Below, in pieces: positions 27,080 to 42,749 of a stretch of 42,749 nt of DNA. The translations under genes and the position numbers were made by a program. Below the pieces are notes generated by a model that was not told the DNA's origin, ran no database searches, and saw nothing but the letters and a program-made list of their open reading frames with translations. The DNA comes from an uncultured Lachnospiraceae bacterium (GTDB lineage Bacteria; Bacillota; Clostridia; Lachnospirales; Lachnospiraceae). The DNA lies in NCBI GenBank assembly GCA_947626965.1, contig CANQUH010000013.1:1-42749 (forward strand), given 5' to 3'. Positions within the stretch are counted from its first letter, which is position 1; the number at the start of each line of letters is the position of its first letter.

Positions 27080-27360
27080 TGAGATAGGCTTGAAAAGCCA
27101 GTGTTTGCACGATTTTAAGAATTTGTTTAGGAACTGACGATAATTTGAAAATATATTTCACATTACATACTGAGTGATTACTTCAATAATATAAAAAATC
27201 TTACTGAGTTTACGCAAGTAATAAGGAAGGTGGAAATAATTGCATTTCTATCTGAAAACTGCCGGAAAAGTCAGTGAGATTTTTTATTTCCGCAAGTAAT
27301 GAGCTAAACGGCGTGCTTCTATGCAGCATTGATGAAATGAAAGAACATTTGTTCTAACCA
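27080..27360. other. Intergenic region at the GC drop, with inverted repeat
   Basis: No gene is seen. An imperfect inverted repeat (27191-27208 with 27271-27287, ATAAAAAATCT.ACTGA arms) encloses about 62 bases, and each arm is followed by a GCAAGTAAT copy. The base composition falls sharply from here on, so this is the likely left border of the acquired region. Confidence 0.55.
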
Positions 27361-27389
27361 TTGAAAACAAATGAAATATAGGTTATAAT
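27361..27389 (+). promoter_or_regulatory. Promoter and possible operator of the restriction-modification genes
   Basis: TTGAAA, 17 bases, TATAAT. The inverted repeat CATTTGTT...AACAAATG (27346-27353 and 27366-27373) brackets the -35 and could bind a regulator, although no controller protein gene is present. Confidence 0.8.
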
Positions 27390-27425
27390 CAGGTCACAAC
27401 TGACAGGCAGGTGATACAGAATATA

Positions 27426-28910: not shown

Positions 28911-29820
28911 GGTTGATGATGCAAGAGAAATTCTGAACTATATTGGAATGCCGAAAGCTCAGCAGGCGGACTTATGCTGTTATACTTTACTGGCAATGGC
29001 GGGAATTAAGCCTGATATGAGATGGAGTCAGGCAACTAATGAATGGATTCGCATCCATGAGATCATTCAATTTGTGAATACATATTATGGAATTACTTAC
29101 GCTGAAAACAGTCGGGAGACCTTTCGGAAACAAGCGCTGCATCGGTTTAGAACAGCAGCCGTTGCAGAGGATAATGGGAAAGCAACGAACAGCCCAAATT
29201 ATAGATACAGATTGACGGATGAAACATTGGAAATGATAAAATACTTTCAAAGCGCGGGCTGGAACGCAGCGGTTTCACGATATATGAAATATCATGACAG
29301 ACTGGTAGACATTTATGCTTCCAAAAAGAAAATGACAATGATGCCTGTAAAAATAAACGGAGCAGATTATAAATTTTCTACAGGGAAACATAATGAACTG
29401 CAAAAAGCAATTATAGAGGAATTTGCTTCCAGATTTGCGCCGCATTCTGAATGTTTATATGTAGGAGATACCATTGAGAAAGATCTGGTAAAAAACATAG
29501 AGAAATTGACTGCGCTTGGATTTGAAATTACACTTCATGATAAAATGCCGGATGTGGTGTTGTATAGAGAAGATAAAAACTGGATTTATTTTATAGAGTC
29601 GGTTACTTCAGTGGGCCCGATGGACCCGAAACGGATTCTTGAAATTACAGAAATGACTAAGAATGTGAAAGCTGGAAAGATATTTGTCACAGCATTTCTG
29701 GATTTTAAGACGTATAAGAGATTTTCTAATGAACTGGCATGGGAGACGGAGGTTTGGATTGCTGAGATGCCGGAGCATATGATACATTTGAATGGGGGTA
29801 AGTTTTTGGGACCCAAATAA
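28903..29820 (+). CDS. Type II restriction endonuclease, BsuBI/PstI family
   Basis: This 305-residue protein has an N-terminal winged-helix-like half (about 1-130) and the C-terminal catalytic half of the BsuBI/PstI family (PF06616). The active-site region is visible: MPDVVLY (about 215-221) and, after ten residues, FIESVTSVGPMDPKR (about 230). The family cuts CTGCAG; the site is inferred from kinship, not shown. GTG 28903 follows TGGAGGAG and overlaps the methyltransferase stop, which ties its translation to prior methylase synthesis. Confidence 0.9.
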   Translation: MSKVDDAREILNYIGMPKAQQADLCCYTLLAMAGIKPDMRWSQATNEWIRIHEIIQFVNTYYGITYAENSRETFRKQALHRFRTAAVAEDNGKATNSPNYRYRLTDETLEMIKYFQSAGWNAAVSRYMKYHDRLVDIYASKKKMTMMPVKINGADYKFSTGKHNELQKAIIEEFASRFAPHSECLYVGDTIEKDLVKNIEKLTALGFEITLHDKMPDVVLYREDKNWIYFIESVTSVGPMDPKRILEITEMTKNVKAGKIFVTAFLDFKTYKRFSNELAWETEVWIAEMPEHMIHLNGGKFLGPK

Positions 29821-30542
29821 AGAAATAACACTTTACAAGTTTTTGTTTTAAGGAGTCTATGAAAATTTTTTGTAAAATAAATCTGAAGAAGATCTTTTAC
29901 TATAGAAATGAAAAATATTATCCAGAAGTTGATCTAGAAATATGACATTAGAAATATGTGACGAATAATCTAATAGTTTTTATCATGGGGATAGTATGAC
30001 AAAAACTTTTGCAACGTATTCCGAAAGAATGTCTGTCATATGGCAGTTTGACCTGTTCCTGATATCGTTAGAAATGGAAGTCTGTATAGTATCTGAAGTG
30101 ATATATTGAATTGAGGAATAGTGTTCCATTTCATGACATCATCCAGCGTGTGATGAGGATGATCCGCCCGGAGAACCTGTAGCAACTGTGAAATAGCAGG
30201 AGTTTATGAACAGTAATGGGGGAAACTGAAAAGATCAGGATGGTCTAGAAGTAAATATCCAGGATTATTACTAGGCGGAAGATATAAAATGGATGAGTCC
30301 GAGAAGAAAGTAGACGGAATACTGGTATTATATCAGCAATAAGGAAGTGGTATCCTGAGTATGCTGAAATATATAGAGATACGAGGTCAAAAGATGACAT
30401 TGTGGAGAAAAAGTGGTTTAATATAAGTTTCGTTCCGGCGCAATTTATTAATGAACAGGTCTTGTTTTGAAAAAGAAAGGTTTTTAGGGCAGAGAGTTGA
30501 GAACCATTTATGTGTTTGTTTTGTTGAAATTTGCTTACACTA
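29821..30542. other. Gene-free, degenerate AT-rich stretch
   Basis: About 720 bases hold only short open frames broken by many stops. One piece (about 30320-30468) reads like a decayed protein end (IRKWYPEYAEIY) but I cannot assign it. No RNA gene or repeat is evident. Confidence 0.6.
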
Positions 30543-30571
30543 TTGACAAGTAAAACAAAAAATTGTATTAT
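30543..30571 (+). promoter_or_regulatory. Strong promoter of the His/Asn-rich peptide gene
   Basis: TTGACA, 17 bases, TATTAT: a consensus-like sigma-A promoter with start near 30578, 47 bases before the peptide start codon. Confidence 0.88.
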
Positions 30572-30624
30572 ATAAATACCATGGATCTAAGTGTATGAAT
30601 TTGTATAGGAAGGAGAATGAACAG

Positions 30625-30780
30625 GTGGATAATGCTACTAAAAAGGAGTATCAGTTTGTTGGTGATTTTTCGGATGAGGCTAAGAAGGACTTTCTTAAGT
30701 TTTTGAACGAGTTGCATGAACAAGAACACAATTGTGGTGTTGTATCTCATACAAATCATTCCAATCACAATAATTGGTAA
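30625..30780 (+). CDS. Candidate RiPP precursor peptide with HxN triplets (51 aa)
   Basis: This 51-residue peptide has an acidic, helix-prone leader-like part (FSDEAKKDFLKFLNELHEQ, about 15-33), then a short end with one Cys (residue 37) and three tandem His-x-Asn triplets (HTN, HSN, HNN, residues 42-50) closed by Trp 51. GTG 30625 is chosen because AGGAAGGAG lies nine bases upstream; ATG 30595 is only about 17 bases from the predicted transcript start with no ribosome site. A strong promoter drives it, and a UvrA-like gene and four radical SAM genes follow. The leader/core shape and context suggest a substrate of those enzymes. The product and cleavage site are unknown, and no known family is recognised. 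Confidence 0.7.
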   Translation: MDNATKKEYQFVGDFSDEAKKDFLKFLNELHEQEHNCGVVSHTNHSNHNNW

Positions 30781-30991
30781 AATTCAATTGAAAGAAGAGT
30801 ATAAGGTCGTTGTATCAGTCCAATTGACATGTAAGCTGAAGGGCTTCTTGAGGATTTGCTTCAACGACTTTTGCTTATAAATATGTGGAAAAAGTTGATT
30901 TTGGGACAATTCAGATAAATAAGATTTCAGAATCTTTGGCGTGCTCCCGTTGGCTGAAAAATTTTGAGAAGTGACGATCATCTTAGCCCAG

Positions 30992-31231
30992 TCAATTGGA
31001 AAATTTTGGGAAAAAGGACGTAAAATGAGTAGTAACACATTTGAAGGATCGGTATCTGTTGCTTTCCAGATTATAGTCCGCTTGCTCACGTTTGTTGCAG
31101 CGTTTCGCAGATGTCCTTGCGCTGTATTTGAGTTTCCATTGCCTGTTGTTTTTGGGCAGGTTATTGAAGAGTTTGGGATTGTCTTTTAAAAGAAGATGAA
31201 TCATACTTTGTATCGGAGTAGGGATTTTCAC
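30992..31231 (-). pseudogene. Probable transposase C-terminal remnant
   Basis: The minus strand encodes a fragment with LPKNNRQWKLKYSARTSAKR, then CNKREQADYNLESNRYRS. It resembles the C-terminal part of DDE transposases with a conserved R..SNKREK.DY.LE..RHRS pattern. The N-terminal and catalytic parts are missing. Assignment is from memory of the pattern. Confidence 0.45.
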
Positions 31232-31249
31232 AGGTACAAGAGAGCTGTC

Positions 31250-31719
31250 CTACAGCGAAGCTAAGCTAATCTTCAGGCATCGAAACTTGCACTTGTTCCG
31301 TTCAAGTTCAGTTTTGTATCTATGCATGGGAAGCTCCTGCTGGCAGACAGGAACACCATCCTTATTAACAGTACCTCCCATGCAGATGGGAGTTATTGCT
31401 CATTCCCAACCGCTGGCGTATATTAAATCCAACGGTAAAGATCAGCTGGATTTTGGGCCTGTAGCCCGTACAGTAAACTGATTTCAGGTACTCTCATTTG
31501 CACCATCATCTGTCCAGCCGGACGTACAATAAAATGACAACCGAAAGGGTACCGTGCCGTAAATTCATCCACGGAGGTGCCATTATGGATAAGATTTACG
31601 ACAAATGTTGTGGTATTGGCTTGCACAAAAAACTTATCGTCGCCTGTTTCAGAAAAGACAGCAGACAGGAAGTACGTGAGTTTGGCGCAACAACCAAAGC
31701 TGAAAGGAATGAATGGTGA
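31250..31719 (+). mobile_element. IS110-family 5' remnant (left end and transposase start)
   Basis: The frame at 31585-31719 (44 codons) begins MDKIYDKCCGIGLHKK and continues LIVACFRKDSRQEVREFGA, the classical start of IS110-family transposases. The usual GIDVHKK is changed: the catalytic Asp is replaced by Gly. The frame then stops. The roughly 330 bases before it look like the non-coding end of such an element, which in IS110 encodes the bridge RNA. The right part is lost. It sits between the peptide gene and the UvrA-like gene. Confidence 0.75.
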
Positions 31720-31840
31720 TTATTCTACTTTTACTTTATGTTTTATAGTGTATATGTTGATATAAGGGAAAAAGAAAGGAAGCCAAACGCAAGGTAATAT
31801 AGTCTCTTCAACCGAATTTGTATTACTGTGTAGCGGCAAA

Positions 31841-34800
31841 ATGTTGATTAGTATGGAAATATTAGTGAATAATGCATATGCAAATAATCTTAAGAATCTA
31901 GATGCAAAATTGCCGATTGGTAAAGTGATAGGTATTGCTGGTGTATCTGGATCGGGGAAAAGTACATTTGTTAAAGAGGTGATTTCAGCATATGGAGCGC
32001 AGAACTATGCTTTTTCACTTCCAATGTTTGAAAGAGGATTGGTCGCAAGTAATACAATTGTGTCAGTAGAGTCCATTGATAATCTTCCTGCTACATTGAT
32101 GATAGATGTTGTGAATAGCGTGAATAATCCAAATTCTACATTGTCTACAATTTCAGGTATCCATTCATTGCTTAGAGAGCTTTATTTTTTGCATGGAAAT
32201 TATCATTGCCCGATCTGCAATAATCAAGTTGAAAATAATACGTTTGACATTGTTCCAAACATACCATATTCTGCTTTTGTTGATGTGAAGTGTGATGCTC
32301 GTTATAATGAAAGGGTAACTGCGATTAAAGAGAACTTTATCATTCAAAAAACTGAATATTATGATAAAGGTAATAAGTCTCAAATGAAAAAAATCAAAGA
32401 TGGGTATGCACGGTTTTTTTTAACGGTTGATTCTAAGAAACTTAGCAAAGTTGCTCAAACATTAAAAAGATGTGCAAATATATCTCTTCGGATAATGCTT
32501 TTGGAAAATAACTCTATAGTTGACACTGGAATTCATACTATATGTAAACATTGTCATACTGTTCTTCCGAAGAAGAGTAAGAAGTTATTTTCATTTAACA
32601 TTTCAGAACAAGATGGTGGTGGCGCATGTATACGTTGTTCTGGGTCTGGACGAATTATAACTTGTAATATTCAGTCTTTCATTTCCCAGGATGTACCGAT
32701 GAATAACGGAGGTATACCGACAATAACTGATAAAGGAATCCAGTACACAACCGTTACAGAAAAATTCTTAGATGCCGTTGCTATAAAATATGACTTTTCT
32801 TGGAATAGCACATTTAGAGAATTGAATGAGATACAGCAGAGAATCGTATTGGATGGCTCTGAAGAACTGATTACATTTACAGATCGCCGTGGATCCAACG
32901 GAGGAAAGAAGTCAGAGCAATTTTTAGGATTTAGAACATACACAGTGGAGAGTTATCGGGCGGGAAAAGGAACTGCCAAGCTCAGTAAGTATGTCCAGGA
33001 TGAAGTTTGTCCTGAGTGTAACGGTAATCGTTTAGACAAGATAACTGAGTACATTACCTACCGTGGAACAGCTTTAAGGCATTTGTTATCATTGAATCTT
33101 CATGAACTTGGAGAGAAGACTGATGATTGGATTACAGAAGCGGCTCCTGATGAAAGAGTTATACTTGAGCAGATAAAAGCAAAAGTTAGTATATATGAGG
33201 ATGTAGGTTGTGACTATCTTGAGTTGAATAGACAGTCCACAACCTTAAGTGGCGGAGAACTTCAGCGTTTAAGATTGTGTTCATTTTTTTCTGGAAATGT
33301 TACAAACACTTGTATTTTGCTGGATGAACCTACTACCGGTTTACATCAGAAGGATATTGAGAAAATAGCAGCATTATTGCATAAATTTAAAATAATGGGA
33401 CATACTGTAATACTCATTGAACACAATAAACAAATATTATCTACATGTGATTATATCTTGGAATTAGGACCTGGTGGAGGAGCCGAGGGTGGTAAAATAC
33501 AAAGCAGTGATTGGCTGGAAGGCAGTGATAGAAATTATAAGAAATTTAGTATATTGAGTAATATTACTACAAACAATGAGCCAGCAGTTATAATATCTTC
33601 AGATTTTAAATCAAAAACTATTCATATGGAAGATTTTTCGGCATTGTATATAAAGCACCAATCAGTAGCATTTCCAATGAATAACTTGATTGTTATTTGT
33701 GGTGTGTCTGGTAGCGGAAAATCTACTTTTGTTAACCATTGTTTAATACCATATCTTAGTGCCAACGGAAAAAAACTTGGAATAAAACATATTGAAAACC
33801 TTGGACAAAAAAATGCCGCAAGAACTGTAACATCTAATGTTGGTAGTTTGCTTGAAATTAATGATAAAATTGCACAGCTTTATGCTAAAACAAGTGGACT
33901 TGGGCAGGGAAATTTTATGATTAATTCTTCCGAAGGAAAGTGTCCGGTGTGTGGTGGAAAGGGACGCATTGAAATAGAAGAAGGGGTGTATGAGACTTGT
34001 CCTAATTGTGAAGGCAAAATGTTTAGTGAAGAAGTTTTGCGAATCGAGTATCAGGGATTAAACATATTAGAGTTCTTGCAAACTTCTTTAAAACAAATAA
34101 TTCCTTTGGTGCAGGATGACAAAAAGTTGAATAAACTATTCAGTTTATGTGAGAAAATTGGAATTGGCTATCTTTCTTTAATCAGATCCTCAAAGACATT
34201 GTCTAAAGGTGAGATTCAGAGAGTTAAGCTCGTTAATGTGCTTTCTAATGCTGAGAGGGATAATGTATATATTCTTGATGAACCTTCAAAAGGGTTACAT
34301 CCGTTTGATATTGGCAAGTTATTGAATATCATTTCTGAGATTATTAAGAACAGGAACACAGTAATTGTTGTTGAGCACAATGTTGATTTCATTTCTCGAT
34401 GCAATTATGCTATTGAATTTGGACCTTCATCTGGAAAAAATGGGGGAAGGGTTGTATTTTCGGGTAGTGTAGATAACCTTAAATGTGCAGATACATCTAC
34501 AGGCAGAGCATTACAGGGAAAAAGAATTCAAATTGAGAAAAATAAAGATTGCCTCATGGAGACAATTACAGGAAATAATGACATACAGTTGATTGATAAT
34601 ATTATCATTAGGAGGAATGCTATCAACTATATCAGTGTTCTACCAATTGACATAGATAAACTCTTTAATTATACAAATAAAAAGTACTTGGATGCCGCAT
34701 TGCCGGCAAATGCATTTTTTGTGAAAGGGCAAGATACCGATGATCAATTTAGTGAATGTAGGATACCAATTATTCGACCAGTAGGAATAGGTAATGTTTC

Positions 34801-35680
34801 ATTTGGTAGAAAGACACGTATTGTTGATGCATTAGGGCTTTATGCCGCTATTTCAAGATACTTCTTACCAATATCGGTAAATACTATGACTGGTGAGAAT
34901 TTTGTCCCTGATGCATTTTCACCGGCAAGCCTATTGGGAAAGTGCCCGATATGTAAAGGAGCCGGAGAGCTTGAACAATTTGATTTTTCTCTTGCTTTCT
35001 CAAGTGGAACAATTCATCCGTCAGTTGAAAAAATGCTAAAAAAAAGAACAAATTATACTATTGCGAAGAAGTATTTAAAAAAGAACTATGGATTAGATAT
35101 TTTCAGACGGTTTGACGATTTGACTGAAGAAGAAAAAATAGTACTCTTATTTGGAGATAGGAGGCGAAAGTTCTATGAAAAAAATAAAGAGTACTATTGG
35201 GAAGGGTTGAATAGGCTTGTAACGAAGGAATTGAGGTACATGGAAGACGAGGCATTGGCGGAGGAGATTCGCAAAAGCAAACGTGTTTCGCTTTGCATGG
35301 CATGTAACGGAGCATTGTTGAGTAAGCCATATAGGGATTTGGATCACCCAACTGTAGGATATAGCCAATTTATGCACTGTTCATTTATTGATTTACTTAG
35401 GATTATAAAGAATGATGTTTCAGCGAATCGTCAGTTGATTGAAGCGTTCGAAACGGTTGTAGCTTTTGGACTTGGAAACTATAACTGTTTTACCAAGGTG
35501 TCCAATATGAGTAAAGAAGAACAAGCTTTAATTCAACTTACAGCCTATTTGATTCATCCCATATTTGATTCTATTATTGCTATTGATGATAGTATAATAA
35601 GAATTTGCACATCAGTCGAAGATACGTTGAAAAAAATGACTCAAAACTGTACGGTAATTATTAATAAGGGCGGAGAGTAA
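31841..35680 (+). CDS. Three-module UvrA-like ATPase (1279 aa)
   Basis: This 1279-residue protein is a UvrA-type ABC ATPase much longer than the normal 940 residues. Module 1: Walker A GVSGSGKS (34-41), zinc-type cysteines (YHCPICNN; CKHCH..CIRCSGSGR), signature LSGGELQRL (about 469), Walker B LLDEPTTGLH (about 492). Module 2: Walker A GVSGSGKS (about 621), Cys motif CPVCGGKGR, signature LSKGEIQRV (about 787), Walker B ILDEPSKGLH (about 809). Residues of about 930-1279 resemble a third half-module: CPICKGAGELEQFD (about 1035), LCMACNG (about 1151), but no Walker A and a weak IIAIDDS. UvrA finds DNA lesions; UvrA-like DrrC protects the daunorubicin producer. Here self-protection or DNA/product handling is inferred. 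Neither ATG 31841 nor 31853 has a good ribosome site. It is followed after 6 bases by a radical SAM gene. Confidence 0.85.
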   Translation: MLISMEILVNNAYANNLKNLDAKLPIGKVIGIAGVSGSGKSTFVKEVISAYGAQNYAFSLPMFERGLVASNTIVSVESIDNLPATLMIDVVNSVNNPNSTLSTISGIHSLLRELYFLHGNYHCPICNNQVENNTFDIVPNIPYSAFVDVKCDARYNERVTAIKENFIIQKTEYYDKGNKSQMKKIKDGYARFFLTVDSKKLSKVAQTLKRCANISLRIMLLENNSIVDTGIHTICKHCHTVLPKKSKKLFSFNISEQDGGGACIRCSGSGRIITCNIQSFISQDVPMNNGGIPTITDKGIQYTTVTEKFLDAVAIKYDFSWNSTFRELNEIQQRIVLDGSEELITFTDRRGSNGGKKSEQFLGFRTYTVESYRAGKGTAKLSKYVQDEVCPECNGNRLDKITEYITYRGTALRHLLSLNLHELGEKTDDWITEAAPDERVILEQIKAKVSIYEDVGCDYLELNRQSTTLSGGELQRLRLCSFFSGNVTNTCILLDEPTTGLHQKDIEKIAALLHKFKIMGHTVILIEHNKQILSTCDYILELGPGGGAEGGKIQSSDWLEGSDRNYKKFSILSNITTNNEPAVIISSDFKSKTIHMEDFSALYIKHQSVAFPMNNLIVICGVSGSGKSTFVNHCLIPYLSANGKKLGIKHIENLGQKNAARTVTSNVGSLLEINDKIAQLYAKTSGLGQGNFMINSSEGKCPVCGGKGRIEIEEGVYETCPNCEGKMFSEEVLRIEYQGLNILEFLQTSLKQIIPLVQDDKKLNKLFSLCEKIGIGYLSLIRSSKTLSKGEIQRVKLVNVLSNAERDNVYILDEPSKGLHPFDIGKLLNIISEIIKNRNTVIVVEHNVDFISRCNYAIEFGPSSGKNGGRVVFSGSVDNLKCADTSTGRALQGKRIQIEKNKDCLMETITGNNDIQLIDNIIIRRNAINYISVLPIDIDKLFNYTNKKYLDAALPANAFFVKGQDTDDQFSECRIPIIRPVGIGNVSFGRKTRIVDALGLYAAISRYFLPISVNTMTGENFVPDAFSPASLLGKCPICKGAGELEQFDFSLAFSSGTIHPSVEKMLKKRTNYTIAKKYLKKNYGLDIFRRFDDLTEEEKIVLLFGDRRRKFYEKNKEYYWEGLNRLVTKELRYMEDEALAEEIRKSKRVSLCMACNGALLSKPYRDLDHPTVGYSQFMHCSFIDLLRIIKNDVSANRQLIEAFETVVAFGLGNYNCFTKVSNMSKEEQALIQLTAYLIHPIFDSIIAIDDSIIRICTSVEDTLKKMTQNCTVIINKGGE

Positions 35681-35686
35681 TAGTAT

Positions 35687-36607
35687 ATGGGCTATTTAGA
35701 AAATTATCGGAAAATTGAATCGCATATTGTATTAGGATATAAATGTAACCATTATTGTCGACATTGCGTTGTGCAGGTAAAGCGTACTCGCGCTATGGAA
35801 GAGAACGCAAATGATTTATCAAAAGATGAGGCATTTAAGGCAATTCAGACAGCGATAAATAATGGTGCAACTAAAATAGTCTTTACTGGCGGAGAGCCAA
35901 CATTGAGAGAGGACTTGACTGATCTTATAACATATACGTTAGATAACGGGTGTCGTGTGCAGGTTCAAACTAATGGTTCGATGCCCGAAAAGATAAAAGA
36001 AATTTGCGGATGTTGTGATGAGCATCTAGATATGCTTGAGTTCATGATTCCACTTCATAGTGCAAATGCCGAAAGACATGATTATATATGCAGAAGTAAT
36101 AATGGTTTCAACCAAGCCATTGAGAGTTTGAAAATAATCTTGCATGCAGGGGTTCGGATAATAGGTAAAATCGTACTCACAAAATTTACGGATAGCTTAA
36201 CCGACATTTGTAGAGTTTATGAAAAGATTGGCGCATCAAGCATTATTATTGCTTATCCGCATTGTGTTAGCTTTCCTATAGATGTCATTAGGGAGGTGGA
36301 TTTGGAGAAAAAAGATACAGAAAGAATTTTTTTTGAATTTTTTAAGAGTGAATATCATGTGCCAATTATTCTTCAGGCATTTCCAAGATGTTTTATTGGG
36401 GAACAGACTAAGGCTATTATTCAAGAGGAACAGGAGGATTTTTTAGCTCTGGAAATAGTTGAGCATCAATTTAGAATGAAGGATGGCAAGCAGTGGCATA
36501 TATTCAGAAAACTCGATAAAAGGAAATTTTCTTATTGTACGTCATGCCGGTATAATAATAATTGTGAAGGAATATGGAAGGATTATCAGAAAGCTTATGG
36601 AAATTAG
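35687..36607 (+). CDS. Radical SAM protein, type A copy 1
   Basis: This 306-residue protein binds a [4Fe-4S] cluster through CNHYCRHC (Cys 20, 24, 27) and has the SAM-binding GGEP (about 70). The C-terminus carries another Cys group (YCTSCRYNNNCEGIW, Cys 284, 287, 293) that may bind a second cluster. It is shorter than SPASM maturases. ATG 35687 follows GGCGGAGAG, six bases after the UvrA-like stop. It resembles the protein at 37705-38625, with the same length, the same TGGEPTL and the same C.GxW ending. It overlaps the next radical SAM gene by 11 bases. Its likely role is carbon-centred cross-linking or another radical change of a cluster peptide. Confidence 0.88.
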   Translation: MGYLENYRKIESHIVLGYKCNHYCRHCVVQVKRTRAMEENANDLSKDEAFKAIQTAINNGATKIVFTGGEPTLREDLTDLITYTLDNGCRVQVQTNGSMPEKIKEICGCCDEHLDMLEFMIPLHSANAERHDYICRSNNGFNQAIESLKIILHAGVRIIGKIVLTKFTDSLTDICRVYEKIGASSIIIAYPHCVSFPIDVIREVDLEKKDTERIFFEFFKSEYHVPIILQAFPRCFIGEQTKAIIQEEQEDFLALEIVEHQFRMKDGKQWHIFRKLDKRKFSYCTSCRYNNNCEGIWKDYQKAYGN

Positions 36608-37703
36608 TAATCATGATTTAGTATTAATTCTCAAAAATGCTGGTACAGCATGTAATATCGGATGCAAGTATTGTGCTGAAGCGCGAAAAAAGCTGGTTAA
36701 ATTAACTGAAGATAATATAGTTACCCTTAATGATATAGATATACTTATGAAGCAAACGGCTTCCGTGGAAAACCTGACAGTTCTGTTCCATGGAGGAGAG
36801 CCTCTTTTACTTTCGATTGAATATTATGATAAGATTATTAAGAAATGGCGTAAACAGCGTGACGATGTTTATTTTGGTTTTCAGACGAATGCTATATTGA
36901 TTGATGATGAATGGCTTGATTTTTTTGAGATAAACAGGGATGTTGTAGGAATTTCAATCAGTCTTGATGGAGATGAATCTGCCAATTCAAATCGGAAAAG
37001 TAAGGATGGAAAACCTACATATTTTGATGTGATTCGAGTTTTGAAAAAATTGCAGAGTAGAAATTTGAATACAGGGATGATTGCAACATTGACACAGGAA
37101 GCACTGGGAAGAGAGCAAGAATTATTTGACCTTGTATCTCAGTTTAGTAATATTAGATTTTTGAAACTCAATCCATGTTATGATATGTGGTCTGATGGAA
37201 GTGTTCCCGAATGGGGAATTCTTCCCAATGAGTATGCTCAGTTTGTTATCAACTTCTTTAATATAATGTTTGATAATTGTTACTTTGAAAAGCTGAATGT
37301 GGAACCAAGCCTGAGTATAATTAAAAGTCTTGAGGGAATAGAAAACTCTTTCTGCAACTTCTGTGAAAAAAAATGTAGTCATTTCCTGAGTGTTTATCCT
37401 AATGGCAGAGTGATTGCTTGTGACAACTTTACTTTTGAAGATGGAATGTATCCTAATTTATATGATCAAGACAGTATTGAGGAACTCTTGGTAAAGAAGC
37501 CGCAGCCATTATTTGATCAACTAGATTTTTTGCTTGCAAAATGTAAAGGCTGTGAATATCAAAATATTTGCTATGGAGGATGTTTGGCTGTAAGACGTAG
37601 ATACTCGTTTTTTGGTAAAAATGGAGAAGAGCAGTTGTACTGTGATGAGATGAAAAGAATGATTGAGTTTATTAAAAGCAGAATAGAAAGTGTGCGTAGA
37701 TAG
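36597..37703 (+). CDS. Radical SAM/SPASM peptide-maturase-like protein, type B copy 1
   Basis: This 368-residue protein has CNIGCKYC (Cys 19, 23, 26), FHGGEPLL and a C-terminal SPASM domain (CNFCEKKC, YPNGRVIACDNF, CKGCEYQNICYGGCLA) for auxiliary iron-sulfur clusters. SPASM proteins are typical maturases of ribosomal peptides, forming thioether, C-C or C-O bonds. ATG 36597 gives a normal N-terminus; the frame is open further upstream but lies inside the previous gene. The segment FLKLNPCYDMWSDG is matched by VRFNPCFDMGDGG in the protein at 39523-40560, so these two are paralogues. Confidence 0.88.
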   Translation: MEISNHDLVLILKNAGTACNIGCKYCAEARKKLVKLTEDNIVTLNDIDILMKQTASVENLTVLFHGGEPLLLSIEYYDKIIKKWRKQRDDVYFGFQTNAILIDDEWLDFFEINRDVVGISISLDGDESANSNRKSKDGKPTYFDVIRVLKKLQSRNLNTGMIATLTQEALGREQELFDLVSQFSNIRFLKLNPCYDMWSDGSVPEWGILPNEYAQFVINFFNIMFDNCYFEKLNVEPSLSIIKSLEGIENSFCNFCEKKCSHFLSVYPNGRVIACDNFTFEDGMYPNLYDQDSIEELLVKKPQPLFDQLDFLLAKCKGCEYQNICYGGCLAVRRRYSFFGKNGEEQLYCDEMKRMIEFIKSRIESVRR

Positions 37704-37704
37704 T

Positions 37705-38625
37705 ATGAACATTTTAGATATAAAATTAACATATAAGTGTAATAATCATTGTCTGCTCTGCTGCCAGGATGATAAGATAAAGAATGATAAAAGCACAATT
37801 GTTGTATCAAATATAATTGCGCATATAAAGAGCATGACATTTAATGAAATCTGTAATACTAAAGTTGTACTTACTGGAGGAGAGCCAACATTACATCCTG
37901 ATATTCTTCGCATTATTGAGATATTTAAAAATAAAGGATTTGCGGCAATTCAACTTCAAACAAATCTTACTTTAAAGACATTATTGATAAATGTAAATGA
38001 TTTGGTAAAAGCTGGAATCACGAGTTTTGGTGTATCATTACATGGATGTAACCGGGAGATGCATGAGAACTTTACCGGAACGAAGGAATCGTTTGTTAAT
38101 ACGTTTAATAATCTTGTTAAGTTATCAAAGTTAAGGATACCTGTGGTGTTAAACTGTGTTATTTCAAAGTATAACTTGAACAGTTTATCTGAGATAGTCG
38201 CGTTTGTGGCCAAGAACCACTTGGCGGATAGTATTCAGTTTGCTTTTATTCACATTACTGGACGGGCGGAGCAGCATCACGAACTGGTTCCCACTATATC
38301 TTCTGCGGCTAAAGAAGTTCAGAATGCAATAACCCTTGGGAATCAGTTAGGTATTGTTGTTAAAAGTGAAGCAATTCCGTTTTGCATGATGAGAGGATTT
38401 GAAAGAAATATAGCGGAGCTTGAACAGCTGAACAATATTATTGTTTTGGATAAAAAGGGAGCAATGCACTTCTCAAGACATAGAGAAGAGTGTCTCAAAA
38501 CAAAAGCTAAAGCATGTGAGCAATGTTTATTTTATTCTATGTGTGAGGGACCTTGGGTAGAATATCCACAATTATTTGGCTGGAAAGAGTTTGTTCCTGT
38601 TCGGAGAGTGAGGCCTTATGAATAA
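37705..38625 (+). CDS. Radical SAM protein, type A copy 2
   Basis: This 306-residue protein has CNNHCLLC (Cys 12, 16, 19), VVLTGGEPTL and the C-terminal group CEQCLFYSMCEGPW (Cys 271, 274, 280). Layout and length match the protein at 35687-36607, though identity is clearly low, so the pair is an old duplication. Start ATG 37705 lies one base after the preceding stop; a GTG at 37690 is possible. It overlaps the kinase-like gene by 8 bases. The position of the histidine-rich HITGRAEQHHE stretch (about 195) is peculiar to this copy. Confidence 0.86.
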   Translation: MNILDIKLTYKCNNHCLLCCQDDKIKNDKSTIVVSNIIAHIKSMTFNEICNTKVVLTGGEPTLHPDILRIIEIFKNKGFAAIQLQTNLTLKTLLINVNDLVKAGITSFGVSLHGCNREMHENFTGTKESFVNTFNNLVKLSKLRIPVVLNCVISKYNLNSLSEIVAFVAKNHLADSIQFAFIHITGRAEQHHELVPTISSAAKEVQNAITLGNQLGIVVKSEAIPFCMMRGFERNIAELEQLNNIIVLDKKGAMHFSRHREECLKTKAKACEQCLFYSMCEGPWVEYPQLFGWKEFVPVRRVRPYE

Positions 38626-39505
38626 ATTGGATAATTTGAAATTGATTGGAAAGGGTAGCAATAGTAAAGTTTATTCTTACTATACGGATGGAAAAGAATA
38701 TGCAGTTAAAGTGCCTTATGATGCTGAAAGATTTATAAGCTGTGCATTGCAGGTAGATTCATTAATGGCTTGTCAAGAAACTAATATATCTTTTGTGACA
38801 CCACAGGTTATTCGATATGACAAACATAATGATATTTGGGGTGAAATACTTGTTATGGAAAGATTTAACAGTATTTATCCAGTCGGTTTTTTGATGAGGA
38901 ATGGAATGATAGAACGAGAGTTGATTTTAAACTGTGCAGCTAAAGCTATTGCTGAATTGCACAGTTTAGGCATTTCTGGGTTTGATGTGGAGTTTTATTG
39001 GTCGTTTGAGTATAAAAAACTGGCATTATTAGATTTGGGGCCAAGATATACGATAGGATATACTAGCGATGAAATGGTGAGCAAGCATTATGCGTATGCT
39101 GTAGAGAACCAAAATTGGATGACATTATGGAATTTAGTATCAGAATTGCTTGATAGTAATGAGGCTATACCACTGTTTCATGAAATTATTCAAGGTAAAG
39201 GAATACCTCAAGTTGAACAACTACAAAATGCTGTAAGTGAAGTTGCTGAACAGGAACATATTCAAGGCGTAGCAAGAAATCATTATCTTCAACTTATAGG
39301 TAATTGTCCTAGCCATTTGCGGGAAAAAATGAAGACTTTGTTTATCAAAAAGTATATTTCTTATTCCAAGGAGGCAAATTTCCTTTATGCTGGTACTTTT
39401 GCAAATGCATGTAGAGAAAGCATTACCTCAAGTACTGTATATCTCTACTTTTCAAGATACAATACATTATCAAAAATGAGTAATTCTGTGAGTGTTATCT
39501 CATAG
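38618..39505 (+). CDS. Protein-kinase-fold protein of the peptide cluster
   Basis: This 295-residue protein shows kinase-fold landmarks: a glycine loop GKGSNSKVY (11-19), the ATP-binding Lys in YAVKVP (Lys 31), a catalytic-loop-like HSLGISGFD (Asp 123) and a metal-binding DLG (Asp 139). The usual Asn five residues after the catalytic Asp is not seen, so activity may be altered. The C-terminal half (about 150-295) is alpha-helical in character and unassigned. It could phosphorylate a Ser/Thr of a precursor peptide, inactivate the product, or serve as a pseudokinase scaffold. The gene is translationally coupled to radical SAM genes. Confidence 0.75.
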   Translation: MNKLDNLKLIGKGSNSKVYSYYTDGKEYAVKVPYDAERFISCALQVDSLMACQETNISFVTPQVIRYDKHNDIWGEILVMERFNSIYPVGFLMRNGMIERELILNCAAKAIAELHSLGISGFDVEFYWSFEYKKLALLDLGPRYTIGYTSDEMVSKHYAYAVENQNWMTLWNLVSELLDSNEAIPLFHEIIQGKGIPQVEQLQNAVSEVAEQEHIQGVARNHYLQLIGNCPSHLREKMKTLFIKKYISYSKEANFLYAGTFANACRESITSSTVYLYFSRYNTLSKMSNSVSVIS

Positions 39506-39522
39506 TATAAAGGAGGATATGG

Positions 39523-40560
39523 ATGGAAGTTTGTTCGCATAATAGACTTGATCCCAATACAATATTGTTCAAAATAAATGGCACAAAGTGCAATCTGAAT
39601 TGTAGATACTGCTCAGAAACAAAGAAGTCGTACAAAAAATCCATGTGTAGTAAAGAGTGTAAAGATATAATATTAGCATTGCCAGCGGCTTGTGACATAA
39701 TATTACATGGAGGGGAACCACTTTTGAACCGTGACACTGTAAGTAAAACTATTTCAGCTTTTAGGGAAAAAGGGATGAAAAGTAAGTTGTCCATTCAGAC
39801 CAATGGAATTATTGATGCTGAAATGAAACAATTATTGTTAGAAAATAGTGACATACTAAAAATCGGTATCAGTATTGATGGACCAAATGAACTGAATAAG
39901 TTAAGAGTAGACTATCATAATAATCCTGTATTCAAACAGGTGGATGAAACCATTTCTTTTTTTTCACAACATGATATTCAGATAAAATGTATTGCAACAG
40001 TTAATGTGGCAAATGTACATGATCCAATAGGTGCTTTAGAATATTTTTTGTCTCATAAGAATATTAGACAGGTTAGATTTAATCCATGTTTTGATATGGG
40101 AGATGGGGGTTTAGCTGATTATGCTATCAGACCTTTACAATTCTTGGAGTATATCATCAAGTTAGCTGACTACTGGATTCGCCATAGAACGTATAAAATG
40201 GTGCGAATTGATCCTATTCAATCTGAAATAGAAGCTGTATTATCACAGGTAACTCATCCGTATATCAATTGTTGTAAATTTATTTCGGTTTATCCCAATG
40301 GGGAATCTACAATATGTGATGCATTAGGCGTTGAGACGTTTGGATACAGTTCAATATCTAAAATCTTTACTGATGCAGAGGGCAAATATATGGATATATT
40401 GAATTTTCCATGTGAAAATTGTAAAGATTTCGTAGATTGTGGAGGCGGCTGTGTGGCTATTTTCAGAAGATTTAGTGGTAGTGATGAATTGATTCAAGAG
40501 TATTGTAATTATCGAAGAAAACTTAAACAACACATAAAAAATATTTTAGAAATAGACTAA
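39523..40560 (+). CDS. Radical SAM/SPASM peptide-maturase-like protein, type B copy 2
   Basis: This 345-residue protein has CNLNCRYC (Cys 23, 27, 30), LHGGEPLL and a SPASM region (CCKFISVYPNGESTICD; CENCKDFVDCGGGCVAIF). It is a paralogue of the protein at 36597-37703. ATG 39523 follows AAAGGAGG, the best ribosome site of the cluster. It is the last large gene; the Cys-rich peptide gene follows 247 bases later with its own promoter. A role in maturing that peptide or the His/Asn-rich peptide is likely but not decided by sequence. Confidence 0.88.
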   Translation: MEVCSHNRLDPNTILFKINGTKCNLNCRYCSETKKSYKKSMCSKECKDIILALPAACDIILHGGEPLLNRDTVSKTISAFREKGMKSKLSIQTNGIIDAEMKQLLLENSDILKIGISIDGPNELNKLRVDYHNNPVFKQVDETISFFSQHDIQIKCIATVNVANVHDPIGALEYFLSHKNIRQVRFNPCFDMGDGGLADYAIRPLQFLEYIIKLADYWIRHRTYKMVRIDPIQSEIEAVLSQVTHPYINCCKFISVYPNGESTICDALGVETFGYSSISKIFTDAEGKYMDILNFPCENCKDFVDCGGGCVAIFRRFSGSDELIQEYCNYRRKLKQHIKNILEID

Positions 40561-40585
40561 AGGGAATAGAAAGGAAATAATTTTT

Positions 40586-40615
40586 ATGAAGAAATTTGGT
40601 GTTATGAAAAAATGA
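40586..40615 (+). other. Nine-codon open frame with a good ribosome site
   Basis: AAAGGAAAT precedes an ATG that opens MKKFGVMKK and then a stop. It could be a leader peptide or the start of a lost third peptide gene. Nothing else is seen in 40561-40738. Confidence 0.3.
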
Positions 40616-40738
40616 CTGTAATGCTATGAGTGTTTAACAGTATATCAAATGTCAGCAAAAATATAAGAAAGTGAGAAATGATTGTACGTGATGAGCTTAA
40701 TACTCTAAAAATCACGGTGTTAAAACTTAAAGACAGGG

Positions 40739-40767
40739 TTGCAATACATAATGTAATTTGATATAAT
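40739..40767 (+). promoter_or_regulatory. Promoter of the Cys-rich peptide gene
   Basis: TTGCAA, 17 bases, TATAAT; start near 40774, about 34 bases before the ATG. Confidence 0.85.
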
Positions 40768-40807
40768 ATACTAAATTAACAAAAATTATATGAGGAGAGG
40801 CATTACT

Positions 40808-40954
40808 ATGCAAATTAAGAAAAGAAAAAGTACTAAACAAGATGTTTCAAACAATAATAGAAAAACTTGCTGTGGTAAACCATCATGTTGTGTAGCATGT
40901 GGTAATCCCGCATATCCCGATTGTAAACTTAGCTGCTCAATGTTTGATGATTAA
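40808..40954 (+). CDS. Cysteine-rich candidate RiPP precursor (48 aa)
   Basis: This 48-residue peptide has a basic N-terminus (MQIKKRKSTKQ, then an Asn-rich hinge) and a C-terminal half with seven Cys (residues 21, 22, 27, 28, 31, 39, 43) in the pattern CC-x4-CC-x2-C-x7-C-x3-C. It has its own promoter and a strong ribosome site (GAGGAGAGG). The stop is followed six bases later by an insertion sequence. Cys-rich peptides beside radical SAM/SPASM genes are typical thioether-forming substrates (ranthipeptide or Clo7bot-like groups). A stand-alone metal-binding peptide is the alternative. It is too short for many gene finders. Confidence 0.72.
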   Translation: MQIKKRKSTKQDVSNNNRKTCCGKPSCCVACGNPAYPDCKLSCSMFDD

Positions 40955-40960
40955 ATATAA

Positions 40961-42067
40961 CTTGAGAGTTAAAAGTTTGTACCATTAAGAAGCCAGCAGA
41001 TCCTCACAGACTTCTGGCTTATCCTCCTGCTGTTCCTGAATTATCCGCGTTATGCGTAATTCCGGGATTTGATTCAAAAGACGGAAAAATGTTTCCTCAG
41101 ATAATCCATCACCGCAGCCTCCGATATCCTCCCTCTTGATGGGATCCTCTGGTATCGGAGCTGGTCCGGCCTGACCTTTCCCATAAAACGGATGGACAGG
41201 ATCTGAAGGATCCCCATCGCGATGCAGGACAGCATCATGTGCATCTCGATGGCACGTACTGTCTCCAGTACTTTTTTCCGGGAACTCTCTGTTTTCACCT
41301 GCTCAAGAGGGGACGGCTCATCCTTTTTCTGATAATGGTTCAGCCTGGGCATGTGTTTTGTCCAGAAGTGGTAACAGAACGCACCCACCTGCTGTTTCAG
41401 TTCCCGGAACGTGCATTCGATTCGGAACCGGCAGCTGTACAACCGGATGATGGATACCGGCTCCAGTGTCAGGCTGGTACTGGCCAGTATTGTCCGGGAA
41501 CCATTGATCTCTGCCAGCACGAACCGCAGCTCCTGGTACAGCTTTTGTCCCCACAGCAGGTCAATGTTGTAATAACGGACATGTTCTTTTTTCCCATAGA
41601 GTTCCATGTCCGCTTCCTGGAACTGCCCTACATGGGAGACAAAGATCCATCAGATGGACGGACGCCCTCTTTCAGGCCTGCGGGGCCCCGGCTTTTCATA
41701 AGCCGTGCAGGATCTTTTCGCTTTTGTGACGATCTCCATGCATACCGTTCCCTCTTCCTTAAAAGATGAGAGCGAGGTCACGGATCACGGAAGTGATCTC
41801 CAGCCTGTCAGAGCGGAGCATCAGCCCGGTGGTGAGGATGACAAACCAGCCAGAGGCGGCCTTACGAGAGAAGCAGGATTCAAAGCGAGAGAGAATATTT
41901 TCAATAAAATTTTCATAATTGTATGGAAAACCACCGGAAAGTATGGTAAACTCATATACAGGATAATTCTTTCCGTGGTTTATGCCTTTCTTAAGTGTGG
42001 GAACTAAAGAATACCATAAAACCATGCGGAAGGGTTATTCTTTTATTGAAAACTTTCAACTCTCAAG
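40961..42067 (-). mobile_element. Internally deleted DDE-type (IS4-like) insertion sequence
   Basis: The ends 40961-40977 (CTTGAGAGTTAAAAGTT) and 42051-42067 are inverted repeats matching at 16 of 17 positions. The minus strand between them encodes the start (CFSRKAASGWFVILTTGLM) and end (FRELKQQVGAFCYHFW) of an IS4-like transposase, but the DDE-bearing middle is gone. No obvious target duplication is seen. It lies directly behind the Cys-rich peptide gene. Confidence 0.8.
40985..42025 (-). pseudogene. Broken transposase gene of the deleted insertion sequence
   Basis: From 42025 downwards the frame encodes an N-terminal region ending IRDLALIF; after a stop/frame change it resumes with EEGTVCMEIVTKAKRS and continues to about 41074 (YLRKHFSVF), where a further frame change precedes the natural end PELRITRIIQEQQED. 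Compared with intact relatives as I recall them, about 150-200 central residues with catalytic Asp residues are deleted. It cannot be active alone but could be mobilised in trans. Confidence 0.8.
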
Positions 42068-42246
42068 GAAGTAAAAAATAGTGTATATTTGCACAAAACT
42101 TGAATAAATATAGTTAATAAAAACAAAGAACACGCCGAGTTTGAATAACACAGCAAGAGCTGGAAAACCTTGAAAAAGGAGTAGCTGGTCACGGAGTGAA
42201 CAGTAGCCGTTCTGGTGTTGGTGCATTGGGACGGTTCAATTTGTGG
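42068..42246. other. No gene recognised
   Basis: A frame without start (about 42125-42348, TQQELENLEKGVAGHGVNS) is open, but it merges into the antitoxin RNA and has no ribosome site. Nothing else is seen. Confidence 0.5.
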
Positions 42247-42275
42247 TTGAAATTTTCCTGTCTATGGCATATAAT
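42247..42275 (+). promoter_or_regulatory. Promoter of the second antitoxin RNA
   Basis: TTGAAA, 17 bases, TATAAT; start near 42282. Confidence 0.8.
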
Positions 42276-42281
42276 ATATTT

Positions 42282-42375
42282 AACAAGAGAGCCGAAAGCT
42301 AGATATGGCCTAGCCGCCGGCAAGCTAAAGTCTGAAGTAGCGCCTTAGTTTACCAGATCGAGGGCGCTACTTTTT
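42282..42375 (+). ncRNA. Antitoxin RNA of the second type I module
   Basis: A transcript of about 94 bases is predicted, with no start codon of note. It contains CTAGCCGCCGG, shared with the toxin leader on the other strand, and ends in the hairpin GTAGCGCC/GGCGCTAC plus TTTTT (42337-42375). It overlaps the last codons and stop of the toxin gene. Confidence 0.7.
42337..42375 (+). terminator. Terminator of the second antitoxin RNA
   Basis: The arms 42337-42344 and 42363-42370 are perfectly paired, followed by five T. On the minus strand the T-run is poor. Confidence 0.8.
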
Positions 42376-42456
42376 GCGTTTCGTGATGGTAATAACAAGA
42401 GTTATCACGGCGCAAAGCATAATCACAAAAGTAAATAAATCACTGTATGTAACCAT
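42367..42456 (-). CDS. Holin-like type I toxin peptide (29 aa)
   Basis: This 29-residue peptide begins MVTYSDLFTFVIMLCAVITL, has one membrane segment (about 7-24) and a basic tail (TKRKK). The start MV.YSDLF is typical of putative holin-like toxins of Firmicutes. The ribosome site AAAGGGGGCT precedes the ATG and lies in a hairpin: CAGCCGCC of the leader faces GGGGGCTG, one mismatch. A convergent RNA overlaps its end. The promoter of the toxin mRNA is not clear, perhaps because an IS66 element begins nearby. Confidence 0.8.
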   Translation of the reverse strand: MVTYSDLFTFVIMLCAVITLVITITKRKK

Positions 42457-42550
42457 AGCACCAGCCCCCTTTCATAAAGTCCGGCGGCTGACGTAATCGC
42501 GTAAACGTCAAATCACTCGCCTTCCAAACCGGCAGGTTTTATGAGATACT

Positions 42551-42582
42551 TTAGAAAACTCAAAAAACTGTTAGTTTTCTAA
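42551..42582. repeat. Inverted repeat before IS66 tnpA
   Basis: TTAGAAAACT and AGTTTTCTAA form a perfect 10-bp stem with a 12-base loop, ending just before the tnpA ribosome site. Confidence 0.7.
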
Positions 42583-42597
42583 AGGAGCGATGTTATT

Positions 42598-42749
42598 ATG
42601 GATAAAACGACCCATGAAATCCGCGCGGCCAGCTGGAGATCGGTCATCAGCCAGTGCCAGGCACGCCCGGCTGGCCAGACCCAGAAGCAGTGGCTGGCAC
42701 AAAACGGAATCTCTGAAAAATCCTATTATTACTGGCAGCGCAAACTGCG
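42598..42749 (+). CDS. tnpA: IS66-family accessory protein TnpA (partial)
   Basis: The first 50 codons read MDKTTHEIRAASWRSVISQC, then KQWLAQNGISEKSYYYWQRK, the standard start of the IS66 OrfA protein, a helix-turn-helix accessory protein needed for transposition with TnpB and TnpC. AAAGGAG precedes ATG 42598. The gene runs off the window, so the state of the element is unknown. Confidence 0.88.
   Translation, partial: MDKTTHEIRAASWRSVISQCQARPAGQTQKQWLAQNGISEKSYYYWQRKL

What the first reader, a model, noticed from the sequence alone, without database searches (positions are those of the whole stretch)
30543..40954. Unfamiliar peptide-modification locus: two candidate precursors, four radical SAM enzymes, a giant UvrA-like ATPase and a kinase-fold protein
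Seen directly: a strong promoter and 51-residue peptide, then a UvrA-like gene, four CX3CX2C radical SAM genes, a kinase-fold gene with overlaps or gaps of 18 bases or less from 31841 to 40560, and a separately promoted 7-Cys peptide. Established: radical SAM/SPASM enzymes beside short peptides usually mature RiPPs, and UvrA-like proteins (DrrC) can protect producers of DNA-active drugs. Inference: a DNA-targeting or DNA-associated RiPP with its own immunity. I know no described system with this gene set. No exporter or protease is present.
Basis: partly seen in the sequence, partly recalled or inferred. Interest (0 to 1): 0.93.

Follow-up and report, generated by a model that had tools for sequence, protein, structure and literature searches.

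The report
Radical-SAM His-Xaa-Asn peptide with UvrA-like guard
A rare gene set, kept in the same order in three bacterial genomes, encodes a short peptide ending in three almost unchanging His-x-Asn triplets that neighbouring radical SAM enzymes are predicted to staple into a rigid product, next to an enlarged relative of the DNA-repair protein UvrA that likely shields the producer, which would make it a new kind of ribosomal natural product.

Summary
A promoter, a 51-residue peptide and six tightly packed genes (UvrA-like ATPase, radical SAM 1-3, kinase-fold protein, radical SAM 4) are present, and the same seven genes recur in the same order in two other genomes (L016, L017). One of the two candidate precursors is confirmed: its relatives share a near-invariant C-terminus, C-G-V-V-S-(HTN)(HSN)(HNN)-W, in which His and Asn never change (13 of 13 rows) while the middle residue of the third triplet does. 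The 7-Cys peptide lies outside the conserved block, has no convincing relative in the collections searched, and is rejected. New here: the core is three tandem His-Xaa-Asn motifs, the spacing used by His-cyclophane-forming radical SAM/SPASM enzymes; the UvrA-like protein carries a third, degenerate UvrA-type module without Walker A or B; the kinase-fold protein is nearest in fold to PRPK/Bud32; a hairpin separates precursor from enzymes. The set is very rare (14 UvrA-like, 14 kinase, 10 precursor clusters found among 5.8 billion proteins). Best reading: a new radical SAM RiPP family, probably a His-Xaa-Asn triceptide, with likely UvrA-type self-protection. Chemistry, target and immunity are untested, and the UvrA-like protein keeps the UvrB-binding region that DrrC/Ecm16 lack.

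The parts
30543..30571 (+). sigma-70-type promoter of the precursor (TTGACA-17-TATTAT)
   Evidence: 11 of 12 consensus matches; a 12-of-12 site precedes the precursor in L016 and in L017
30625..30780 (+). precursor peptide, 51 aa, GTG start, C-terminus CGVVSHTNHSNHNNW
   Evidence: 92% identical to the L016 and L017 copies; 10 homologous clusters; last 15 columns mean identity 0.97 against 0.79 for 36 leader columns
30796..30880 (+). RNA hairpin between precursor and enzyme genes, possible partial terminator
   Evidence: folding z -2.40 (window), -4.63 (L016), -7.43 (L017); of 33 consensus pairs over 3 sequences, 5 with both sides changed and 8 broken in one sequence; no Rfam match
31853..35680 (+). 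UvrA-like ATPase with a third, degenerate UvrA-type module (ATG 31841 is an alternative start)
   Evidence: TIGR00630 E 3e-157, below cutoff; two Walker A and two Walker B motifs, none in module 3; module 3 UvrA-like by hhalign and fold search
35687..36607 (+). radical SAM enzyme 1, short type with C-terminal CX2CX5C
   Evidence: PF04055 E 4.3e-19; related to rSAM3, 23% identity, E 2e-14
36597..37703 (+). radical SAM enzyme 2, SPASM-like C-terminal Cys pattern, candidate cyclophane-forming enzyme
   Evidence: NCBIfam anaerobic sulfatase maturase 7.6e-52, DynA 1.8e-44, YhhB 1.8e-34, all below cutoffs
37705..38625 (+). radical SAM enzyme 3, short type (GTG 37690 is an alternative start)
   Evidence: NCBIfam HxsC4 3.1e-31 and HxsC 5e-23, below cutoffs
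38618..39505 (+). kinase-fold protein, nearest in fold to PRPK/Bud32
39523..40560 (+). radical SAM enzyme 4, SPASM-like C-terminal Cys pattern, paralogue of rSAM2
   Evidence: 27% identity to rSAM2, E 1.5e-40; anaerobic sulfatase maturase 2.1e-28, DynA 2.7e-22, YhhB 9.2e-21, below cutoffs

Best explanation
This is a rare gene set encoding a short peptide with three tandem His-Xaa-Asn triplets, which its radical SAM enzymes are predicted to cross-link into a rigid RiPP, and whose UvrA-like ATPase likely clears that product from the producer's own DNA. Shown: the seven genes recur in the same order in three genomes, the peptide's C-terminus is almost invariant, and His and Asn of each triplet never vary in the 13 sequences seen. 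Inferred: the two SPASM-type enzymes (rSAM2, rSAM4) join each His ring to the beta carbon of the Asn two residues on, as YhhB and HaaB do on other His-Xaa-X motifs; the two short enzymes (rSAM1, rSAM3) act as partners or add a further change; the kinase-fold protein phosphorylates or binds the peptide; the hairpin lets more precursor than enzyme be made. Least certain: that the product acts on DNA and that the UvrA-like protein is its immunity factor.
For: Synteny of precursor, uvrA-like, rSAM1-3, kinase and rSAM4 in the window, L016 and L017. Precursor directly upstream of uvrA-like behind a 12-of-12 promoter in L016 and L017. Equal longest-contig lengths suggest linkage in metagenomes: kinase P0002 with UvrA-like P0015 (8470), P0007 with P0022 (10157), and P0010 with P0027 and precursor P0033 (13666) (an inference from equal lengths). 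Core identity 0.97 against 0.79 for the leader; within SHTNHSNHNNW the only changes in 13 rows are Xaa of the third triplet (2 rows) and the last residue (1 row); upstream of it V to I (2 rows) and G to S (1 row). Pairwise 7, 8 and 7 base differences in the last 16 codons without amino-acid change. rSAM2 and rSAM4 match cyclophane-forming NCBIfam families including YhhB, and rSAM3 matches HxsC4/HxsC best. Literature: YhhB makes C2(His)-Cbeta(Arg), HaaB C2(His)-Cbeta(Ala), XncB and OscB accept Asn at position 3 (PMC11002830, passages). UvrA-like proteins in gene clusters of DNA-binding drugs confer self-resistance (PMC10192343 and PMC10413001, passages).
Against: No exporter, peptidase or leader-binding RRE domain was recognised in the set. 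rSAM2 and rSAM4 score far below every NCBIfam cutoff among the 25 best shown for each, and the best hit is anaerobic sulfatase maturase, not a cyclophane family; rSAM1 is nearest to ScmF, with HxsC4, AhbD, NirJ2 and HxsC after it. The kinase-fold protein has an invariant Trp where I recall the catalytic-loop Asn of kinases, and its catalytic-loop Asp is Asn in 1 of 14 rows, so it may not be an active kinase. The UvrA-like protein keeps a region aligned with the UvrB-binding domain, absent from Ecm16 and DrrC. The window copy has a 928-base insertion between precursor and enzymes. Product and activity are unknown.
Confidence: 0.5

Rival explanations
1. A radical SAM RiPP whose UvrA-like ATPase is not immunity but part of maturation or delivery: its third module or UvrB-like region binds precursor or product and ATP drives handling of the peptide, with no DNA target.
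For: The UvrA-like gene is the first enzyme gene and is kept in all three loci; a third, degenerate module is conserved (98 of 304 positions invariant over 11 sequences); no RRE, exporter or peptidase was recognised.
Against: The UvrA insertion domain, which Ecm16 needs for DNA binding (PMC10192343, passages), is retained (PF17755 E 2.7e-12) and well conserved (mean pairwise identity 0.71 within my boundaries); I recall no UvrA relative that processes peptides.
Confidence: 0.25
2. The product is a metal-binding or cofactor-like peptide with one fixed structure (three His in a row of HxN triplets), not an antibiotic; the UvrA-like protein is a DNA-bound regulator or repair factor.
For: The core is almost invariant while the kinases diverge to 40% identity, unlike a weapon under diversifying selection; His-containing cross-linked RiPPs can bind copper (PMC10206099, title and start of abstract in the listing).
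Against: No metal transporter, receptor or dehydrogenase was recognised in the conserved block; the set is sparse and in L016 lies beside mobilisation genes, which suits a dispensable trait better than a cofactor.
Confidence: 0.2
3. A phage-defence cassette: modified peptide plus UvrA-like DNA sensor and kinase act against invading DNA.
For: In the window the set follows a BsuBI/PstI-type restriction pair; in L016 it lies beside integrase and mobilisation genes. PADLOC models of the MADS defence system match: mad3 (E 1.8e-57) and mad8 (4.4e-21) the UvrA-like protein, mad6 the kinase-fold protein weakly (E 0.0066); prokaryotic viperin models match all four radical SAM enzymes (best 1.1e-17).
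Against: The mad3, mad8 and viperin matches cover stretches common to ABC ATPases and radical SAM enzymes, and the mad6 match only 31 residues of the kinase glycine-rich loop; the two viperin scores shown by NCBIfam are 51.5 and 53 bits against a cutoff of 180; the restriction pair has no nucleotide match in the L016 or L017 stretches.
Confidence: 0.1

Closest known systems
Triceptides (XncB, OscB, MscB, YhhB, HaaB three-residue cyclophane-forming enzymes)
   Same: SPASM-type radical SAM enzymes beside a short precursor with motifs of an aromatic residue, any residue and a fixed third residue; His at position 1 and Asn at position 3 are each known (PMC11002830, passages).
   Different: Three tandem His-Xaa-Asn motifs; two SPASM-type plus two short radical SAM enzymes, a kinase-fold protein and a UvrA-like ATPase; rSAM2 and rSAM4 score below the YhhB, AmcB, GrrM/OscB and FxsB cutoffs, rSAM2 also below XyeB.
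His-Xaa-Ser (Hxs) system, HxsA/B/C
   Same: His-triplet peptide (repeat motif known here from family names and PMC9062424 passages) and paired radical SAM enzymes; rSAM3 is nearest to HxsC4/HxsC.
   Different: Asn in place of Ser; far below HxsB and HxsC cutoffs; UvrA-like and kinase genes in the set.
UvrA-like self-resistance proteins (DrrC, Ecm16, MtrX)
   Same: UvrA relative in a biosynthetic gene set, with two ABC modules and an insertion domain.
   Different: Has the UvrB-binding region that Ecm16 lacks and an added degenerate module; Ecm16 (7sh1, E 4.4e-78) is the weakest of the 11 chains listed. Known examples protect against non-ribosomal or polyketide products, although 642 actinobacterial clusters near uvrA/uvrA-like genes fell into classes that include RiPPs (PMC10413001, passages).
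Enlarged UvrA (NCBIfam PRK00635 excinuclease family, profile of 1809 positions)
   Same: UvrA relative longer than the usual two modules.
   Different: 343.8 bits against a cutoff of 3054; here the extra part is one degenerate module.
PRPK/Bud32 kinases
   Different: 15% identity; catalytic loop reads GFDxEFYW; extra C-terminal helices; no KEOPS partner recognised in the block.

Membership tests
Radical SAM RiPP | Short precursor gene with conserved core, clustered with radical SAM enzymes across genomes | tested here: met
   Three loci with synteny; 10 precursor clusters; core identity 0.97 over 13 rows
Radical SAM RiPP | Post-translational modification of the core | not testable with these tools
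   Needs mass spectrometry
Triceptide | Core with aromatic-Xaa-X3 triplets, first and third residues conserved | tested here: met
   HTN, HSN, H(N/S)N: His and Asn invariant in 13 of 13 rows, Xaa of the third triplet differs in 2 of 13
Triceptide | Maturase reaches the curated score of a known cyclophane-forming family | tested here: not met
   YhhB family: rSAM2 119.3 and rSAM4 74.2 bits against cutoff 445
Triceptide | C-C bond from ring carbon to beta carbon two residues on | not testable with these tools
   Needs NMR
His-Xaa-Ser (Hxs) system | HxsC-type enzyme above cutoff | tested here: not met
   rSAM3 81.4 bits and rSAM1 63.4 bits against 267.9
His-Xaa-Ser (Hxs) system | His-Xaa-Ser repeats | tested here: not met
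   The third residue of each triplet is Asn in 13 of 13 rows
DrrC/Ecm16-type UvrA-like self-resistance protein | Two UvrA-type ABC modules with insertion domain | tested here: met
   Walker A at 34 and 621, LSxGE at 469 and 787; PF17755 E 2.7e-12
DrrC/Ecm16-type UvrA-like self-resistance protein | UvrB-binding domain and its zinc module absent | tested here: not met
   About residues 118-245 align to that region of solved UvrA, with CxxC pairs at 123 and 235; absence in Ecm16 and DrrC from PMC10192343 and PMC10413001
DrrC/Ecm16-type UvrA-like self-resistance protein | Confers resistance to the cluster's own DNA-binding product | not testable with these tools
   Needs expression and susceptibility test
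Canonical UvrA (TIGR00630) | Score above the equivalog cutoff | tested here: not met
   525.4 bits against 729.8; another UvrA-like frame, 31% identical, lies on contig C302 of the same genome
PRPK/Bud32-like kinase | Protein-kinase fold with PRPK as nearest solved structure | tested here: met
PRPK/Bud32-like kinase | Complete kinase catalytic residues | tested here: inconclusive
   K31, E76 and D139 invariant in 14 rows, D123 in 13 of 14, Trp at the place recalled for the catalytic-loop Asn; residue roles were recalled, not superposed

The most novel reading that the evidence does not exclude
A ribosomal DNA-binding drug: three His-Asn imidazole cyclophanes in a row make a flat, rigid, imidazole-rich ligand for the DNA groove, a ribosome-made counterpart of distamycin-like or quinomycin-like binders, and an enlarged UvrA-like machine has evolved to find and strip that one near-invariant ligand from the producer's DNA. 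To my knowledge it would be the first triceptide with a DNA target and its own UvrA-type guard.
Probability: 0.2. Interest if true: 0.92.

Novelty: new variant of a known kind. Interest (0 to 1): 0.75.

Why it matters
If right, it adds a RiPP family with an unusual enzyme set (two pairs of radical SAM enzymes and a Bud32-like protein beside one 15-residue core) and links triceptide chemistry to a UvrA-type resistance marker. UvrA-like genes are already used to mine DNA-binding drugs in actinobacteria (PMC10413001, passages); here the marker would point to a ribosomal product in Clostridia, where the product can be read from the gene. Because the core is nearly invariant, one successful co-expression would settle the chemistry for the whole family.

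Tried and rejected
7-Cys peptide as second precursor: it lies after the end of the conserved block (40660) and was not seen in L016 or L017; no match in plasmids, phages or viral contigs. Of 98 genomes (the window's own and relatives) 3 matched: the window itself and two weak hits, E 0.0046 and 0.0055; one of these loci was looked at and the hit is probably an out-of-frame stretch of a longer frame, by eye. One weak PHROG match, phrog_26488 E 7e-4, unknown function. The 5.8-billion-protein search was not spent on it. It may belong to other mobile-element cargo.

Members of the set in other collections: the kinase was not found in viral contigs, plasmids or phages, nor the precursor in viral contigs. 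The kinase was found in the window's own genome only among 47 genus, 397 family and 392 order genomes, and the precursor likewise among 391 class genomes; these samples overlap and do not include the two genomes of L016 and L017. The UvrA-like query matched 54 of 98 genomes at E 1e-100: the window's own and 53 others at 28-31% identity, none reaching past about residue 913.

Known RNA element for the hairpin: none at gathering score. The alignment of the hairpin has 3 sequences only; its covariation term is small (-0.54) and 8 of 33 pairs are broken in one sequence; 2 of 200 shuffles fold as well in the window. tRNA genes in L016, L017, L025, L026, L028: none. A direct repeat of the guaA-like end marking an integration site in 27000-42749: none found. 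The 928-base insertion as a multicopy element: single copy in the genome; its origin stays unknown. PADLOC hits (mad3, mad8, mad6, viperin) judged generic but listed under the defence rival.

Dropped before counts: UvrA-like P0017, P0018, P0019 and P0022 (708-789 aa) were left out of A2 (10 of 14 clusters plus the window) but used in A7. A1 includes the window's own P0001 and the N-terminally short P0003. A4's P0029 differs from the L016 peptide only in its last residue, so the 13 rows are not 13 independent cases. Leader columns with fewer than 10 letters were not counted.

Literature: no paper with 'UvrA', 'precursor peptide' and 'radical SAM' together; one with 'UvrA-like', 'radical SAM' and 'biosynthetic gene cluster', on bisintercalators (listing only); one with 'excinuclease', 'radical SAM' and 'RiPP', dairy proteomics (listing only); 'His-Xaa-Asn' occurs 0 times in the 15 listed of 952 papers. 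The library holds open-licence papers only; the primary triceptide and Hxs papers were not held.
Full report
OBSERVATION. The peptide is best read as 51 residues from a GTG at 30625. A near-consensus promoter (11 of 12) lies at 30543-30571. The spacing claim (18 bases or less from the UvrA-like gene to the last radical SAM gene) is correct from the coordinates. The window is from an unnamed 413-contig genome, 89.5% complete and 3.1% contaminated.

RECURRENCE. A protein search with the kinase-fold protein found 14 clusters among 5.8 billion sequences, one of them the window's own; the C-terminal 400 residues of the UvrA-like protein found 14, none of them the window's own; a profile of three precursor copies found 10. 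These searches reach only relatives that share exact words and similar length. In a collection of 84,980 species genomes two further loci were found with the kinase profile: L016 (FCNR01000001.1, Eubacteriaceae bacterium CHKCI004) and L017 (JALFVM010000033.1, Lachnospiraceae bacterium isolate SUG1049). Both hold precursor, uvrA-like, rSAM1, rSAM2, rSAM3, kinase and rSAM4 in that order. Protein identities to the window are 80-92% (L016) and 65-92% (L017). The window aligns with L016 at 30542-30917 and 31846-40660, so 30918-31845 is an insertion in the window copy; it is single-copy in its genome. The set is sparse: overlapping samples of 47 genus, 397 family and 392 order genomes held the kinase only in the window's own genome, and 391 class genomes the precursor only there.

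PRECURSOR. Over 13 aligned rows the last 15 columns have mean identity 0.97 (11 invariant) and 36 leader columns 0.79 (10 invariant). The core reads C-G-V-V-S-H-T-N-H-S-N-H-N-N-W. Within the triplets the only change is Asn to Ser at the middle of the third triplet (2 rows); elsewhere in the 15 columns V to I occurs in 2 rows, G to S in 1 and W to R in 1. Between the three full loci the last 16 codons differ by 7, 8 and 7 bases and by no amino acid; about 19% of single changes there would be silent (27 of 144). This indicates strong purifying selection on the core. P0029 is the L016 sequence but for its last residue, so the rows are not all independent.

ENZYMES. rSAM1 and rSAM3 are related (23%, E 2e-14), as are rSAM2 and rSAM4 (27%, E 1.5e-40). 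Among the 25 best curated families shown for each, rSAM1 is nearest to ScmF, HxsC4, AhbD, NirJ2 and HxsC; rSAM3 to HxsC4 and HxsC; rSAM2 and rSAM4, whose C-terminal Cys pattern resembles SPASM, to anaerobic sulfatase maturase, DynA and the cyclophane-forming YhhB, with AmcB, GrrM/OscB and FxsB further down and XyeB for rSAM2 only; all are below the curated cutoffs. Triceptide enzymes join an aromatic ring at position 1 to the beta carbon at position 3: YhhB makes C2(His)-Cbeta(Arg), HaaB C2(His)-Cbeta(Ala), and XncB and OscB accept Asn at position 3 (PMC11002830, passages). Three tandem His-Xaa-Asn motifs with a variable Xaa fit this; the inference is mine and untested.

REGULATION AND SETTING. 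A hairpin lies between precursor and uvrA-like in all three loci (z -2.4, -4.6, -7.4; 5 of 33 pairs with both sides changed and 8 broken in one sequence), as expected if more precursor than enzyme is made. In L016's genome the set follows an integrase, a NikA-like and a MobA-like gene about 7 kb beyond a gene that I read by eye as guaA; in the window it lies 3.5 kb beyond a guaA-like gene (by eye) with a BsuBI/PstI-type restriction pair between. A mobile origin is likely; no att repeat was found in the window.

VERDICT. A new radical SAM RiPP family is well supported (my estimate 0.85-0.9). His-Xaa-Asn cyclophanes: about 0.5. UvrA-type self-protection from a DNA-active product: about 0.4. The 7-Cys peptide is not part of it.

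Noticed in passing
window 27411-29820: Adjacent type II restriction-modification pair: Eco57I-type methylase and BsuBI/PstI-type endonuclease, directly upstream of the set; no nucleotide match in the L016 or L017 stretches.
   Followed up: partly
window 30918-31845: 928-base stretch between precursor hairpin and uvrA-like gene, absent from L016 and L017 and single-copy in the genome; parts look like transposase remnants by eye.
   Followed up: partly
window 40790-40954: Orphan 7-Cys peptide with a weak match to the C-terminus of phrog_26488; no convincing relative in the collections searched.
   Followed up: yes
L017 12203-13141: Second, distant copy of the kinase-fold protein (E 2.9e-20 to the family profile) downstream of rSAM4, keeping the GISGFDxEFYWS motif.
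   Followed up: partly
window 26096-27079 and L025 7957-9561: Both the window set and the CHKCI004 element lie a few kb beyond a guaA-like gene (by eye), which may be a shared insertion hotspot.
   Followed up: partly
window 41074-41607: Transposase fragment (weak PF01609 match, E 1.8e-4, below cutoff) on the minus strand after the set.
   Followed up: no
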